Source: Candidatus Peribacteraceae bacterium
GTDB lineage: Bacteria; Patescibacteriota; Gracilibacteria; Peribacterales; Peribacteraceae
Assembly (NCBI GenBank): GCA_030750465.1
Contig: JASMHZ010000007.1
Location: 1 to 48,656, forward strand
Direction of reading: 5' to 3'
Length of the DNA stretch: 48,656 nucleotides
Position numbers and translations under genes: made by a program. How positions within the stretch are numbered: position 1 is the first letter of the stretch; each line of letters starts with the position of its first letter. Under the pieces are notes generated by a model that was given only the letters and a program-made list of their open reading frames with translations, made no database searches and was not told the DNA's origin. Shown here one piece after another: positions 44,109 to 48,656 of the stretch.

Positions 44109-44496
44109 GGGGATGAATTGGTATCGACTTCGTGATTTCCTGAGTTCGATGTTTCTGTTCAGCTTGGCAACGGTAGCTGTTACCCACTTGTTGCACGAAT
44201 AATTGCAAAAACTGCAAAAGTTCCTGAGGTGTTCATAAGAGCGTTTTCGCCTTCTTATGCCCTCGCCTAGTTCCGCTCAGCGGAACGCGCTCTCCCATTG
44301 ATTCTCGCTATTTGGATAGAGCGTCATCAGCGAGACGTAACTTAACTTGATGTGATTGAGTCTACGTACTTAAGCATCAACCCTTCTTAGTACTTCTCGT
44401 TCTCTCTTTATTCTAAGAAGTATCAGAGAGTTCATAACAGTATGAACACTTACTTCAGCACGTAGCACCCGGGTTCAATTCCCGGCATCTCCACCA
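44109..44496 (+). ncRNA. ssrA: tmRNA (ssrA)
   Basis: 5' GGGGATGAATTGGTATCGAC; 3' GGGTTCAATTCCCGGCATCTCCACCA; tag frame ending SYALA-TAG at 44268-44270. Confidence 0.93.
44483..44496 (+). repeat. direct repeat, ssrA copy
   Basis: CGGCATCTCCACCA, identical to 48176-48189. Confidence 0.85.
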
Positions 44497-44587
44497 CAGT
44501 ATTATGGCTTCATAAAGCAATTTAAAGCTATATTGCTATAAATGACATAATATGTTATATTACATATGTCTATTTACCCCATATCAT

Positions 44588-44830
44588 ATGTCAGAGAAAC
44601 CTAATGAAACCTTGGAAGAAAAAAATGCACGACTACTTGAGGAAAATGCCAACTTACAACAAAGGGTTGCAGATCTTGAACATGACTTAACTGTAATGAG
44701 ATCGCAAGAACAACAGATGGCTGCATACCATCGTGGCTCTACTCCTGCACCAGGAGCGACGCATGCTATTGAAAAAATAAGGCATCAGCAATCTGATCAG
44801 ATCCTCGAAGAGGGCGATGTGCAAACTTAG
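44588..44830 (+). CDS. small coiled-coil protein
   Basis: MSEKPNETLEEKNARLLEENANLQQRVADLEHDL heptads. Confidence 0.6.
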   Translation: MSEKPNETLEEKNARLLEENANLQQRVADLEHDLTVMRSQEQQMAAYHRGSTPAPGATHAIEKIRHQQSDQILEEGDVQT

Positions 44831-44873
44831 TTGAAATTCAGACTTATTTCCATTCTAGAATCAACTTGTTAAG

Positions 44874-44905
44874 TTGGTTCCAATTATTTCGTACAAGGTC
44901 CACCA
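44874..44905 (+). repeat. 32-nt att-like motif, copy 2
   Basis: TTGGTTCCAATTATTTCGTACAAGGTCCACCA. Confidence 0.6.
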
Positions 44906-44913
44906 AATCTTCT

Positions 44914-46080
44914 TTATATATCGCTACCATTGAATAAACTCAGATAATTATTGTACATGTACGATTGATCATATTTCTTATCTTGTTGCTTTGGCATCAA
45001 AATACCCAAATCAATAAAACGATCAATAACTGTTTGTGCCCCTGCTCGCGTGAAGCCTGTCCACTTTTGAACAAGTGCTGTATTTACAATCGGCTGACCG
45101 TATAACTGAGGAAGAACTTTTATGGCGCTATCAGATGCTCGTTTGCTGAGTGTCTGTATCTTTGCCATATCTTTCTCTTTAAGCACTGTTATTTTTCCAA
45201 CAATATCTATGGCTTCGTCTGCAATTTCGATTACACCGTCCAAGAAGAATTCCACCCAGTCAGAAACGTGTCCAGTATGATACCCGAACAATTTTTCGTA
45301 GTAGATTTTCTGATGTTTTCTGAAATACGAAGAGAGAAACAAAACTGGTTTATCCAAAAAGCCTTCTTTCCACAGGTAAAAAGTGATGAGCATACGACCC
45401 GTTCTTCCATTTCCATCCAAAAAGGGGTGGATAGTCTCAAATTGAGCATGGAGGATGCCTGACTTTATCACTGTTGGTGTTGGGTCATTTGAATGCAAGT
45501 ACTGCTCCAAATCATCAAGTGCTTTCTGCATTTCGGATACAGGAGGTGGAACAAAATGAGCATTATCCGGACGTGTTCCACCAATCCAGTTTTGACTTTT
45601 ACGGAATTCTCCCGGATTAGCAAAGTGTGTCACTCTGGCGCTGTCCATAAGCTCCTTGTGCAATTCTCGAACGAAACGGAGAGACATAGGAAAGTCTTCC
45701 TCTCTTATTCGCTTCATACCATAATTCAGCGCCTGAATGTAATGGAGAATATCATCAACGTCTTCTGAAATATTTTCATTCATTCGTACCTCCGCTTCTA
45801 TAGCATCTATCATCGTTGCTTTTGTACCTTCAATTTGACTGGATGCAGCCGCGTCTTTACGCAGGTACATAAGCAGAAAAAAATCTACATCGGGTAGCAA
45901 TCTGGTGATTCCATCCAGTTTTCCCAGCAAGCGTGTCGCCTCAATATTTTTTTTGAGAATTTTTGCATTGAACATAAATCCACCCTTTGGCGGGAAAGTT
46001 TTTGGGATAAAGGCATCGAAGCCTTCTGTTTGCCTGCGCATAGTTCCCAGTATGATAGGTTCCATTAGGTTTGTTGGCAT
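44914..46080 (-). CDS. Fic-domain protein with N-terminal inhibitory motif and C-terminal winged helix
   Basis: HPFLDGNGRTGRMLI; SSQIEGTKA inhibitory-type motif. Confidence 0.92.
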   Translation of the reverse strand: MPTNLMEPIILGTMRRQTEGFDAFIPKTFPPKGGFMFNAKILKKNIEATRLLGKLDGITRLLPDVDFFLLMYLRKDAAASSQIEGTKATMIDAIEAEVRMNENISEDVDDILHYIQALNYGMKRIREEDFPMSLRFVRELHKELMDSARVTHFANPGEFRKSQNWIGGTRPDNAHFVPPPVSEMQKALDDLEQYLHSNDPTPTVIKSGILHAQFETIHPFLDGNGRTGRMLITFYLWKEGFLDKPVLFLSSYFRKHQKIYYEKLFGYHTGHVSDWVEFFLDGVIEIADEAIDIVGKITVLKEKDMAKIQTLSKRASDSAIKVLPQLYGQPIVNTALVQKWTGFTRAGAQTVIDRFIDLGILMPKQQDKKYDQSYMYNNYLSLFNGSDI

Positions 46081-46196
46081 TGGAATAAGAATGTATACAA
46101 AGTATACTGGTTTGTATGCATTGGGTCAAGAGGTGAAAACAGCCTTAGAAAGCAAATTCTCAAGCATTTTTACTGATTTATTTATGATATGCTTTC

Positions 46197-47102
46197 ATGA
46201 GTATGAAAATCATACTGGTCATTTCCGACTCCAAAGGAAAGAACATCGTCTTTATAACTGACGATGGCTCATCACATTCCCTGAGTGAAGCCATTAAACT
46301 TACAAGAGCAGAGAAGATACATGGTGTACACATTGTAAAGACAGGAAGAGGATCATATCTTCGTGGCAATCCCAATGAAACAGAAATGGACAATCTCGAC
46401 GAACTTTCGATGTCAGCAAACCATGTGCATCTTTCTATTCGTGACTTCGCTTGCATTGCCTCTCTTTCAAGAAAGAAGCGCAAAGTCTGCTTACATCACC
46501 TTGAGCTTCATGGAAGTATGATTGAAGGGAGAGGAAACGATGTCATTTATGTAGAAGGGCATCCTCTAATCACACGCGAAAAAGTAACAGCAACATTGCA
46601 ACCATATACGAAGATCATTCTCGCAGCTGCCAAAGAATTTTCCATTGATCCAAACATACTTGGGGCAATTCTCATTGACGAAGTAGCACGTGCAGCACCT
46701 TGGGAAAAAATATTGGATAAACTTGTCATTGTCGGGAGAAATTCATCAGCTGGCATAGCTCAAGTCACAATGGATACAGCAAAAGATGTCATCAAATCAG
46801 GTTATTACAATCCCAATCATTCTGACAAGAAACTGACACCAGAAATTATTCATAAAACATCAAGAAGACACATATATGACTATGTAATACAGCCACATCA
46901 CAACATTCGCTTTGCTTCAGCAAGAATTAGGCAAACAATCGATTATTGGGAACATGCAGTAAATATTTCTCAAAAACCTGACATCCTTGGAACGCTCTAT
47001 AGCCAAGGCTTAGGAGATCCGAAAGCACATCCTACTCCGAGCGATAGAGGCTTGCAGATTGCGGAGGAGTTTTATTCATTTTTTCAAGAAATTCTCAAAT
47101 GA
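46197..47102 (+). CDS. DUF3892-like N-terminus plus lysozyme/transglycosylase-like C-terminus
   Basis: SYLRGNPNETEMDNLDELS; FSIDPNILGAILIDEVAR, GRNSSAGIAQVTMDTAKDVI. Confidence 0.55.
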   Translation: MSMKIILVISDSKGKNIVFITDDGSSHSLSEAIKLTRAEKIHGVHIVKTGRGSYLRGNPNETEMDNLDELSMSANHVHLSIRDFACIASLSRKKRKVCLHHLELHGSMIEGRGNDVIYVEGHPLITREKVTATLQPYTKIILAAAKEFSIDPNILGAILIDEVARAAPWEKILDKLVIVGRNSSAGIAQVTMDTAKDVIKSGYYNPNHSDKKLTPEIIHKTSRRHIYDYVIQPHHNIRFASARIRQTIDYWEHAVNISQKPDILGTLYSQGLGDPKAHPTPSDRGLQIAEEFYSFFQEILK

Positions 47103-47424
47103 TTACTTCGCTTTTTTGGTCGGCTTTTTTCCTGATGACAATGCTGCCCATTGTCCTGTACACAAGAAAGTGTAACCAGACAATACGCACCACTCTTGCA
47201 ACAATATGGTGTTTCTCTGTAGTGATAGTCTATACGTATGCAGGAATTATATTTTTTTTGCTGGATTGAGACACCGTATGGCTTGATACCACTTTTTTTG
47301 GAACGTATTCCTACAAATTCTTAATCCTAAGACCCATTAAACTCCAATCTCCATAAATAATAATCGGGTATGGCATTGTGACCACAGACTTTTTGGCTTA
47401 AATAAGCCAAATAATTAATTTCTG

Positions 47425-48090
47425 TTATGCGATTTTTGTCGCCCAAATGACGTAGTGGTCGTACTTGTTTATTGGAATTTTCCCTTCCACTTTCTTCACC
47501 TGAAACTTGGAGAACATTTTCTCTACCTTCTGTTCATTAAAATGAAAATGTGGAATGCCAATCTCTGCACCTTTCGTGGGAATGAATGTATGAGATTCCA
47601 CTTGCTTCCCATCTTTTCTATGATGACTCATAGCTAATCGTGGAGCGGTGCACAAAAAAATGCCATTTGGTTTCATGCTCCCCCATATTGTTGCGATCAC
47701 TCGTTGTACATCTTTTTCATATACATGATGGATGACATTGATCGACAAGACGCCATCGAACTTCTCTTTAGGATACTTGAAGTCACTAAAATCTTCCAAT
47801 GTAACAACAGCATGCAATCCTTCATCTTCCAGCCATTTCTCTGTGGCAATTACCGCCTCATTTGAACCATCGAATGCGGTAACATTGAAACCGTTCTTCG
47901 CAAGGTACACCGTATGCCTTCCCATACCACAACCGATGTCCAGCACCTCTGCGTCCTGTGGAAGCTGCTCAGCAAATTTCACTACATCAGGCATCACTTC
48001 TTTCCACGCAGCTTCCCCTGTGGCAGCGTTCATATTCTTCCAATAGTTGTGCAAATGCCCTAATGCCGATTGAGGTCTTTTTAAGGTCAT
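47425..48090 (-). CDS. class I SAM-dependent methyltransferase
   Basis: AEVLDIGCGMGRHTVYLAKNGFNVTAFDGS. Confidence 0.88.
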   Translation of the reverse strand: MTLKRPQSALGHLHNYWKNMNAATGEAAWKEVMPDVVKFAEQLPQDAEVLDIGCGMGRHTVYLAKNGFNVTAFDGSNEAVIATEKWLEDEGLHAVVTLEDFSDFKYPKEKFDGVLSINVIHHVYEKDVQRVIATIWGSMKPNGIFLCTAPRLAMSHHRKDGKQVESHTFIPTKGAEIGIPHFHFNEQKVEKMFSKFQVKKVEGKIPINKYDHYVIWATKIA

Positions 48091-48175
48091 GTCTCAGAAT
48101 ATCACAAACCCTTGCAACCAACATCTTTTTGTGAAGAACTTTACACCTCCATACAGAATATGTAGTAATCAGTTA

Positions 48176-48189
48176 CGGCATCTCCACCA
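48176..48189 (+). repeat. direct repeat of the ssrA 3' end
   Basis: CGGCATCTCCACCA. Confidence 0.85.
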
Positions 48190-48192
48190 AAT

Positions 48193-48219
48193 TTGACAAA
48201 TAATTACAACTATTATATT
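48193..48219 (+). promoter_or_regulatory. sigma70-like promoter for the tRNA-like gene
   Basis: TTGACA, 15 nt, TATATT (or 17 nt to TATTGA). Confidence 0.45.
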
Positions 48220-48275
48220 GAATCTTTATCAAAGATTGCTACACTTGCTTGCCCTATTCTTCGGAATGGGTAGCT

Positions 48276-48394
48276 AGGGGTGTAGCTCAGTTGGTAGAGC
48301 ATCGGTTCAGTGCTCCGCTAGTCGTTTGGCTCAGGGCCAAAAGAGACGGTTGGAGTGCCCCCGAAGGTCGCTGGTTCGAGTCCAGCCACCCCTA
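48276..48394 (+). tRNA. tRNA-like gene with ~46-nt hairpin insertion in the anticodon loop; identity undetermined
   Basis: AGGGGTG TA GCTC AGTTGGTA GAGC A TCGG[..]CCGA AGGTC GCTGG TTCGAGT CCAGC CACCCCT A; all other arms canonical. Confidence 0.65.
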
Positions 48395-48397
48395 CTT

Positions 48398-48424
48398 CCC
48401 CTCATCTGCATTGTGGATGAGGGG
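48398..48424 (+). terminator. terminator-like hairpin after the tRNA-like gene
   Basis: CCCCTCATC TGCATTGTG GATGAGGGG, followed by CTGTTT. Confidence 0.55.
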
Positions 48425-48465
48425 CTGTTTAGAATGTTGCTCCACTCAAGTATTTCAAGAGCCAA

Positions 48466-48497
48466 CTGGTTCCAACTCTTTCCCACCATCTCCACCA
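48466..48497 (+). repeat. 32-nt att-like motif, copy 3
   Basis: CTGGTTCCAACTCTTTCCCACCATCTCCACCA; last 11 nt identical to the tmRNA 3' end. Confidence 0.65.
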
Positions 48498-48656
48498 TCT
48501 ACTTTTGGCTTAAATAAGCCATTAATTTATATATTTGTCAAAAGATAATAGAGTTGTATAATAAAAATATGTCTACAAACCTGCATTTACCCCTCAAATG
48601 CATCACTTTGGTGAGGTGAAATAGGATGATCGCAGGAGATTGTGTACTAACATTAC

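What the first reader, a model, noticed from the sequence alone, without database searches (positions are those of the whole stretch)
48276..48394. tRNA-like gene with a structured ~46-nt insertion in the anticodon loop
Seen: acceptor (AGGGGTG/CACCCCT), D, variable and T arms are canonical and Trp-like in outline. The anticodon stem TCGG/CCGA encloses 53 nt instead of 7. The insert folds: GTGCTCC/GGAGTGC (two G.U), GTC/GAC and TTTGGC/GCCAAA. No canonical U33-anticodon is visible before processing. It is too short for a group I intron. A promoter-like sequence and a terminator-like hairpin flank it. Options: a small tRNA intron unusual in bacteria, a decoy or regulatory tRNA-like RNA, or an att-targeting mimic.
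Basis: partly seen in the sequence, partly recalled or inferred. Interest (0 to 1): 0.8.

Follow-up and report, generated by a model that had tools for sequence, protein, structure and literature searches.

The report
tRNA-like RNA carrying a hairpin stalk
In an uncultured Peribacter bacterium a tiny mobile gene cassette carries one RNA gene that folds like a transfer RNA but has a conserved hairpin stalk where the anticodon should be, so it probably does not read codons and instead uses the tRNA body to display a structured RNA.

Summary
Window 48276-48394 scores 57.5 bits against Rfam tRNA (cut-off 29) with 55 nt, not 9, between anticodon half-stems TCGG/CCGA. The insert folds into a stalk. 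A homologue exists in Candidatus Peribacter sp. UBA2144 (RNA gene about 91% identical): all 22 anticodon-arm pairs persist, two by changes on both sides. The two copies share only a ~308-bp unit. Identity collapses outside it at direct repeats of the tmRNA (ssrA) 3' end, CATCTCCACCA, so it is an ssrA-repeat-bounded cassette inserted at unrelated places. Inside, the RNA gene is better conserved than its spacers (p = 2e-5). A small tRNA intron is unlikely: no single excision gives a 5-bp stem with U33 in either copy, and no tRNA-splicing endonuclease or RtcB was found in five genomes of the genus. The genome already has a normal tRNA-Trp, and its other 36 tRNA genes encode CCA; this one does not. 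Best reading: an independently expressed, non-decoding tRNA-scaffolded RNA moved by an ssrA-targeting element; its target is unknown. It was found in 2 of 353 genomes of the class. In passing, viral contigs contain many tRNA genes with small, precisely removable inserts, a separate finding worth following.

The parts
48276..48394 (+). tRNA-like RNA gene (acceptor AGGGGTG/CACCCCT, D arm, anticodon half-stems, 5-nt variable loop AGGTC, T arm, residue 73 = A; no encoded CCA)
   Evidence: RF00005 57.5 bits; G003 homologue 49.5 bits
48302..48305 (+). 5' anticodon half-stem TCGG, pairs with 48361-48364
48306..48360 (+). 55-nt stretch replacing the 9 nt of positions 31-39; stalk in which GTGCTCCGC pairs with the GGTTGGAGTGC side
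48325..48341 (+). tip hairpin TTTGGCTCAGGGCCAAA; two pairs changed on both sides in the homologue (TCTGGTTTAGGACCAGA); can also be drawn as 5 bp + 7-nt loop with U33 and CAG/UAG
48361..48364 (+). 3' anticodon half-stem CCGA
48252..48270 (+). 5' leader hairpin CCCTATTC-TTCG-GAATGGG, conserved in homologue
48218..48245 (+). candidate promoter TTGAAT-N16-TACACT (homologue TTGACG-N16-TATAGT)
   Evidence: sequence; (homologue); below the cut-off
48398..48424 (+). terminator-like hairpin CCCCTCATC...GATGAGGGG; 48399-48424 is 26/26 identical in homologue
48190..48497 (+). 308-bp cassette: unit shared by G000 and G003 in different surroundings
   Evidence: blastn ends at 48180/48497; identity falls to 38-43% outside
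48176..48189 (+). left boundary repeat CGGCATCTCCACCA, exact copy of tmRNA 3' end 44483-44496
48467..48497 (+). right boundary repeat TGGTTCCAACTCTTTCCCACCATCTCCACCA
44875..44905 (+). further ssrA-end-like repeat TGGTTCCAATTATTTCGTACAAGGTCCACCA, bounding an upstream cassette
44109..44496 (+). tmRNA gene ssrA, whose 3' end is the repeated sequence
44914..46080 (-). SoFic-type Fic protein in the neighbouring cassette 44906-48189

Best explanation
48276-48394 is an independently transcribed, non-decoding tRNA-like RNA. It was built from host-type tRNA sequence (Trp-like 5' half, Pro-like T arm and 3' half) whose anticodon loop was replaced by a stable two-part hairpin stalk. It is the only recognisable cargo of a 308-bp cassette bounded by copies of the tmRNA 3' end, part of a row of such cassettes downstream of ssrA. 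SHOWN by sequence: the fold, the conserved pairs, the cassette boundaries, two unrelated insertion contexts, no encoded CCA, no canonical anticodon loop by a single excision in a 5-bp frame. INFERRED: it is transcribed, trimmed at its ends by RNase P and RNase Z/exonucleases through the intact acceptor and T-arm elbow, left unspliced, and acts through the stalk as a stable accessory RNA. Of the possible actions I think a decoy or regulator for a tRNA-binding factor (such as an anticodon nuclease or another tRNA-acting toxin of a competing element) is the most likely, but no target has been shown.
For: tRNA fold well above cut-off in two species. RNA gene 154/169 identical against 74/105 in cassette spacers, p 2e-5. 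All 22 pairs of the anticodon-stem-plus-stalk structure kept, two by double change; random placement of the same substitutions gives 0 broken pairs with p 0.007 and at least 2 double changes with p 0.019. Leader hairpin and terminator kept. Not protein-coding: 10 of 12 differing codons are nonsynonymous. No 5-bp-stem/U33 splice solution in either copy. No tRNA-splicing endonuclease or RtcB in five genomes of the genus. A complete tRNA-Trp exists elsewhere. All 36 other tRNA genes end in CCA and this one does not. Boundaries are ssrA-end repeats and flanks are unrelated. A neighbouring cassette carries a SoFic-type Fic protein.
Against: Only two sequences, so the covariation is thin: shuffling 3' letters reaches the observed score in 126 of 500 cases, and the structure was drawn from these same sequences. 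The insert alone is not significantly better conserved than the spacers (84% vs 70%, p 0.08). No expression data. Function and target are inferred. A CCA-adding enzyme is present, so charging is not excluded. The own genome is only 82% complete.
Confidence: 0.55

Rival explanations
1. It is a translation tRNA interrupted by a small intron (46-48 nt) that is removed by an unknown splicing activity.
For: The two half-anticodon stems are intact. In a 4-bp-stem frame, excisions after position 36 or 37 leave UUCAGCC or UUCAGUC in both copies. ARAGORN intron mode finds a 48-nt intron. Small removable inserts do occur in tRNA genes of viral contigs: 31 of 91 against 0.7 expected.
Against: 0 of 18 excisions per copy give a 5-bp stem with U33. 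The 4-bp frame needs a pyrimidine at 37 and a stem one pair short. ARAGORN's best anticodons disagree between the copies (Val CAC, Leu UAG). No tRNA-splicing endonuclease or RtcB. No bulge-helix-bulge. CAG would imply Leu on a class I body, and tRNA-Leu(CAG) already exists.
Confidence: 0.17
2. It is a tRNA pseudogene: a tRNA copy captured in a mobile cassette, broken by a hairpin insertion and drifting.
For: No CCA, no anticodon, one broken D-stem pair in the homologue, residue 73 not conserved, found in only 2 of 353 genomes of the class.
Against: T arm, acceptor stem and terminator are identical between species while spacers are 62-76% identical. No stalk pair is broken by 9 substitutions (p 0.007). 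Leader and terminator are kept.
Confidence: 0.17
3. The RNA or its DNA serves the mobility of the cassette itself (an integration or recombination signal, or a regulator of the recombinase), comparable to the conserved tRNA-like locus in Dehalococcoides ssrA islands.
For: The gene fills most of a minimal cassette. Dehalococcoides ssrA islands carry a conserved 76-bp tRNA-like locus with a 5-nt anticodon loop in 16 integration modules (PMC3146451). An integron-integrase/XerA-like recombinase occurs in both genomes that hold the gene.
Against: Other cassettes with the same boundary repeats lack it. The gene does not resemble the repeat. No recombinase lies in these cassettes, and no link between the recombinase and the repeats is shown.
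Confidence: 0.11

Closest known systems
tRNA (Rfam RF00005), in particular tRNA-Pro(CGG) and tRNA-Trp of the same class
   Same: Acceptor, D and T arms, variable loop and conserved tertiary residues; 60/64 body identity to a tRNA-Pro(CGG) of the family, 30/31 of the 5' half to a tRNA-Trp.
   Different: 46 extra nt in the anticodon loop, no usable anticodon, no encoded CCA; the C1-G72 pair of the tRNA-Pro relative is replaced by A1-U72.
Conserved tRNA-like (tRNA-Gly-like) locus of Dehalococcoides ssrA genomic islands (McMurdie et al. 2011, PMC3146451)
   Same: A tRNA-like gene with an abnormal anticodon loop carried by islands stacked in tandem at ssrA and bounded by copies of the ssrA 3' end.
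   Different: There a 76-bp locus inside a mom-like gene of a serine-recombinase integration module; here a free-standing gene with its own leader and terminator, with a long stalk, in a 308-bp cassette without a recombinase.
Archaeal and eukaryotic tRNA introns
   Same: Small insert in the anticodon loop.
   Different: No bulge-helix-bulge, no splicing endonuclease, no canonical spliced loop.
Bacterial group I introns in tRNA anticodon loops
   Same: Insertion in the anticodon loop.
   Different: Far too short; no Rfam group I match.
Artificial tRNA scaffold for RNA expression (PMC3753655, and general knowledge)
   Same: A structured RNA grafted into a tRNA anticodon stem.
   Different: Natural, mobile and conserved between species.
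tmRNA tRNA-like domain (general knowledge)
   Same: tRNA-like ends with a long helix where the anticodon arm would be.
   Different: Full D stem, no tag reading frame, G3-C70 rather than G3-U70.

Membership tests
Functional elongator tRNA | Cloverleaf with acceptor, D and T arms | tested here: met
Functional elongator tRNA | 5-bp anticodon stem with 7-nt loop and U33, directly or after one excision | tested here: not met
   no solution with a 5-bp stem; only 4-bp-stem solutions with a pyrimidine at 37
Functional elongator tRNA | CCA end (encoded, or added) | tested here: inconclusive
   Not encoded although 36/36 other tRNA genes encode it; a CCA-adding enzyme is present
Archaeal-type (BHB) tRNA intron | Bulge-helix-bulge at the exon-intron borders | tested here: not met
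   Predicted fold has one internal loop between the anticodon stem and the stalk, in both copies
Archaeal-type (BHB) tRNA intron | Splicing endonuclease (PF01974) and RtcB ligase (PF01139) in the genome | tested here: not met
   0 of 5 genomes of the genus for each; positive controls found
Group I intron | Conserved catalytic core, about 200 nt or more | tested here: not met
   Insert is 46 nt; only RF00005 matches at E <= 1
ssrA-repeat-bounded mobile island or cassette | Direct repeats of the ssrA 3' end at both borders, located downstream of ssrA | tested here: met
   homologous unit ends at the repeats
ssrA-repeat-bounded mobile island or cassette | Own or linked site-specific recombinase | tested here: inconclusive
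   Integron-integrase/XerA-like recombinase in both genomes but not linked
Dehalococcoides-type ssrA-island tRNA-like locus | 76-nt tRNA-Gly-like RNA embedded in a mom-like gene | tested here: not met
   119 nt, stand-alone, different sequence type

The most novel reading that the evidence does not exclude
A natural tRNA-scaffolded RNA: a mobile cassette gene whose product keeps the tRNA elbow and ends for processing and stability but displays a dedicated hairpin, possibly ending in an anticodon-arm-like tip (5 bp + 7 nt, U33, CAG/UAG), on a long stalk in place of the anticodon arm, to bind or titrate a tRNA-acting factor. It would define a class of non-decoding tRNA-like accessory RNAs spread by ssrA-targeting elements.
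Probability: 0.35. Interest if true: 0.75.

Novelty: new variant of a known kind. Interest (0 to 1): 0.55.

Why it matters
tRNA-like RNAs without a decoding role are known but few, and a structured domain grafted into the anticodon arm is mostly known as an engineering device. A naturally mobile one in a Peribacter genome, next to a Fic defence-type gene in a row of tmRNA-end-bounded cassettes, suggests that ssrA-targeting elements spread RNA cargo. With the tRNA-like locus of Dehalococcoides ssrA islands it makes a testable pattern: do elements that insert into tmRNA tend to carry abnormal tRNA-like RNAs, and why?

Tried and rejected
(a) Single-excision splicing, all split points, 5-bp and 4-bp frames: no acceptable loop. 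(b) Group I or other Rfam family: only RF00005. (c) Protein-coding reading of the conserved open frame 48249 onward: 10 of 12 changed codons nonsynonymous. (d) Search for more homologues: a covariance model of the insert over 353 genomes of the class and 380 of the phylum found only the two copies; a D-arm/T-arm pattern with inserts found only the same two in the class and one unrelated case elsewhere in the phylum; the exact core pattern found nothing in viral contigs; phage and plasmid BLAST gave only ordinary tRNA halves. (e) Link to the viral insert-bearing tRNAs: rejected, because the window insert is not removable in the same way. (f) A recombinase next to the repeats: none found; the integron-integrase-like gene lies on other contigs.

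Full report
OBSERVATION. The region 48276-48394 (+) matches the Rfam tRNA model from first to last position at 57.5 bits, with the model's anticodon region replaced by a long insert. ARAGORN without introns reports only tRNA-Asn and the tmRNA in the window. Between TCGG (48302-48305) and CCGA (48361-48364) lie 55 nt instead of 9. The whole RNA folds at -50.7 kcal/mol (z -2.9; 1 of 200 shuffles as stable) and the insert alone at -21.7 (z -2.5). Nothing else in Rfam matches 48190-48500 at E <= 1.

HOST. The window is contig C62 of a 1.0-Mb, 64-contig genome, 81.8% complete. A homologue lies in genome G003 of the same genus. The same 6092-bp contig was found in the named collection as Candidatus Peribacter sp. 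UBA2144, DCXE01000028.1, placed in Peregrinibacteriota, class Peribacteria. The window's genome is therefore a Peribacter relative. Apart from this gene 36 tRNA genes were found, among them a normal tRNA-Trp(CCA), and all 36 encode CCA. The gene in question has ...CCCCTACTT instead.

CONSERVATION. The RNA gene (leader hairpin to terminator) is 154/169 identical between the two genomes, against 74/105 in the spacers of the same cassette (Fisher p 2e-5). T arm and variable loop are 22/22, acceptor 5' strand 7/7, terminator hairpin 26/26. The insert alone is 46/55, not significantly above the spacers (p 0.08). Its 9 substitutions break none of the 22 pairs (p 0.007 by random placement), and two pairs of the tip hairpin change on both sides, U-A to C-G and C-G to U-A (p 0.019). 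Two sequences cannot carry a strong covariation claim, and the shuffle control is weak (126 of 500). A conserved open frame through the gene is not a protein: 10 of 12 changed codons are nonsynonymous.

CASSETTE. The two genomes share only about 318 nt. The blastn match ends at 48180 and 48497, and identity drops to 38% and 43% just outside. Those ends coincide with copies of the tmRNA 3' end: CGGCATCTCCACCA at 48176-48189 is identical to 44483-44496 at the end of ssrA, and TTTCCCACCATCTCCACCA ends at 48497. A further degenerate copy is at 44875-44905. In G003 four such sites lie on one strand of the contig (ends at 76, 1948, 2258, 2644), bounding a 482-aa protein cassette, the tRNA-like gene, and a GIY-YIG protein. 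In the window the cassette before the tRNA-like gene holds a SoFic-type Fic protein, a DUF3892 protein and a methyltransferase. Tandem islands bounded by ssrA-end repeats are known in Dehalococcoides, and there each of 16 integration modules holds a 76-bp tRNA-like locus with a 5-nt anticodon loop (PMC3146451). I found no recombinase inside these Peribacter cassettes. An integron-integrase/XerA-like gene occurs in both genomes on other contigs, and its role here is unproven.

IS IT AN INTRON? I tested every split of a single excision. With the normal 5-bp stem and 7-nt loop, no split puts U at position 33 in either copy. With a 4-bp stem, several splits give U33, with CAG as anticodon in both copies when cut after position 36 or 37, but then position 37 is a pyrimidine and the stem is one pair short. 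ARAGORN's own intron calls disagree between the copies (Val CAC, Leu UAG). None of five genomes of the genus has a tRNA-splicing endonuclease or RtcB, while positive controls were found. The fold has no bulge-helix-bulge. The intron reading is therefore unlikely but not excluded.

ORIGIN OF THE BODY. Over acceptor, D, anticodon half-stems and T arm the best single match among the tRNAs compared is tRNA-Pro(CGG) of a family member (60/64). The 5' half alone is nearest tRNA-Trp (30/31) and the 3' half nearest tRNA-Pro (31/35). The comparison set was limited to tRNAs near BLAST hits, so 'chimera' is a possibility, not a result.

TIP. TTTGG-CTCAGGG-CCAAA (homologue TCTGG-TTTAGGA-CCAGA) can be drawn as an anticodon arm with U33 and CAG or UAG. 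It can equally be drawn as a 7-bp hairpin with a 3-nt loop; the pair at loop positions 32 and 38 covaries, which favours the closed form. I treat the anticodon-like reading as suggestive only.

MECHANISM. Shown by sequence: tRNA-like ends and elbow, a stalk instead of an anticodon loop, conserved leader hairpin and terminator, movement as an ssrA-repeat-bounded unit. Inferred: transcription, end processing as for tRNA, persistence unspliced, and action through the stalk. A decoy or regulator of a tRNA-acting factor fits a mobile cassette beside a defence-type Fic gene, but no target has been shown. A drifting pseudogene is the main sober rival; the conservation pattern argues against it.

DISTRIBUTION. 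Insert model: 2 of 353 genomes of the class (both in this genus), and only the window's own copy among 380 sampled from the phylum. tRNA genes with a 24-54-nt insert between D and T arms: only the same two in the class, and one different case elsewhere in the phylum. Thirteen stretches in the GTDB-based collection match a stricter pattern with a CGG/CCG anticodon stem, mostly archaea, as expected for archaeal introns.

SIDE FINDING. The same pattern in IMG/VR hit its limit at 120 contigs. Of 91 with good acceptor and T stems, 31 become a canonical anticodon arm (5 bp, U33, purine 37) by removing one stretch of 31-54 nt, against 0.7 expected from shuffled inserts. Insertion is mostly after nucleotide 28 or 29 of the anticodon stem, and many share a hairpin followed by ACAGCAA. 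A paper search found no description of it. It does not explain the window's gene.

Noticed in passing
IMG/VR loci L106, L107, L117, L122, L144, L146, L154, L162, L178, L197, L201, L205, L218 and others: tRNA genes of viral contigs with 31-54-nt inserts, mostly in the 5' anticodon-stem strand (after nt 28 or 29), whose removal restores a canonical anticodon arm in 31 of 91 cases (0.7 expected); many share a hairpin plus ACAGCAA. They look like an undescribed type of small tRNA intron; splicing mechanism unknown.
   Followed up: partly
L148, L176, L186, L190, L195, L219 (IMG/VR): A second conserved type: tRNA-like genes inside phage tRNA clusters with AGGAACCTCYTCAYGGTGAAGGACCAAAT...GAGGGTAAACCAAGCC in place of the anticodon arm; not made canonical by one excision.
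   Followed up: no
L236 (Microscilla), L242 (Bacteroidetes): Bacterial contigs with tRNA genes (for example tRNA-Lys UUU in L242, 52-nt insert by ARAGORN; tRNA-Gly UCC and tRNA-Pro UGG in L236) carrying ~50-nt inserts with a shared GAAAAT...AGGTCAA...CTTACTTC pattern.
   Followed up: no
L260 (G453:C6:44159-44252): Another genome of the same phylum with a tRNA-Val(UAC)-like gene carrying a ~36-nt insert, next to tRNA-Phe.
   Followed up: partly
window 44497-48656 and L221 1-3000: Row of short cassettes bounded by copies of the tmRNA 3' end, a Peribacter counterpart of Dehalococcoides ssrA islands; recombinase not identified.
   Followed up: partly
window 44109-44496: tmRNA with a long predicted tag (AKTAKVPEVFIRAFSPSYALA).
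   Followed up: no
L004 (G000:C22:32703-32776): tRNA-Ile with a UAU anticodon; no tRNA-Ile(GAU) and no tRNA-Met was found in the 82%-complete genome.
   Followed up: no
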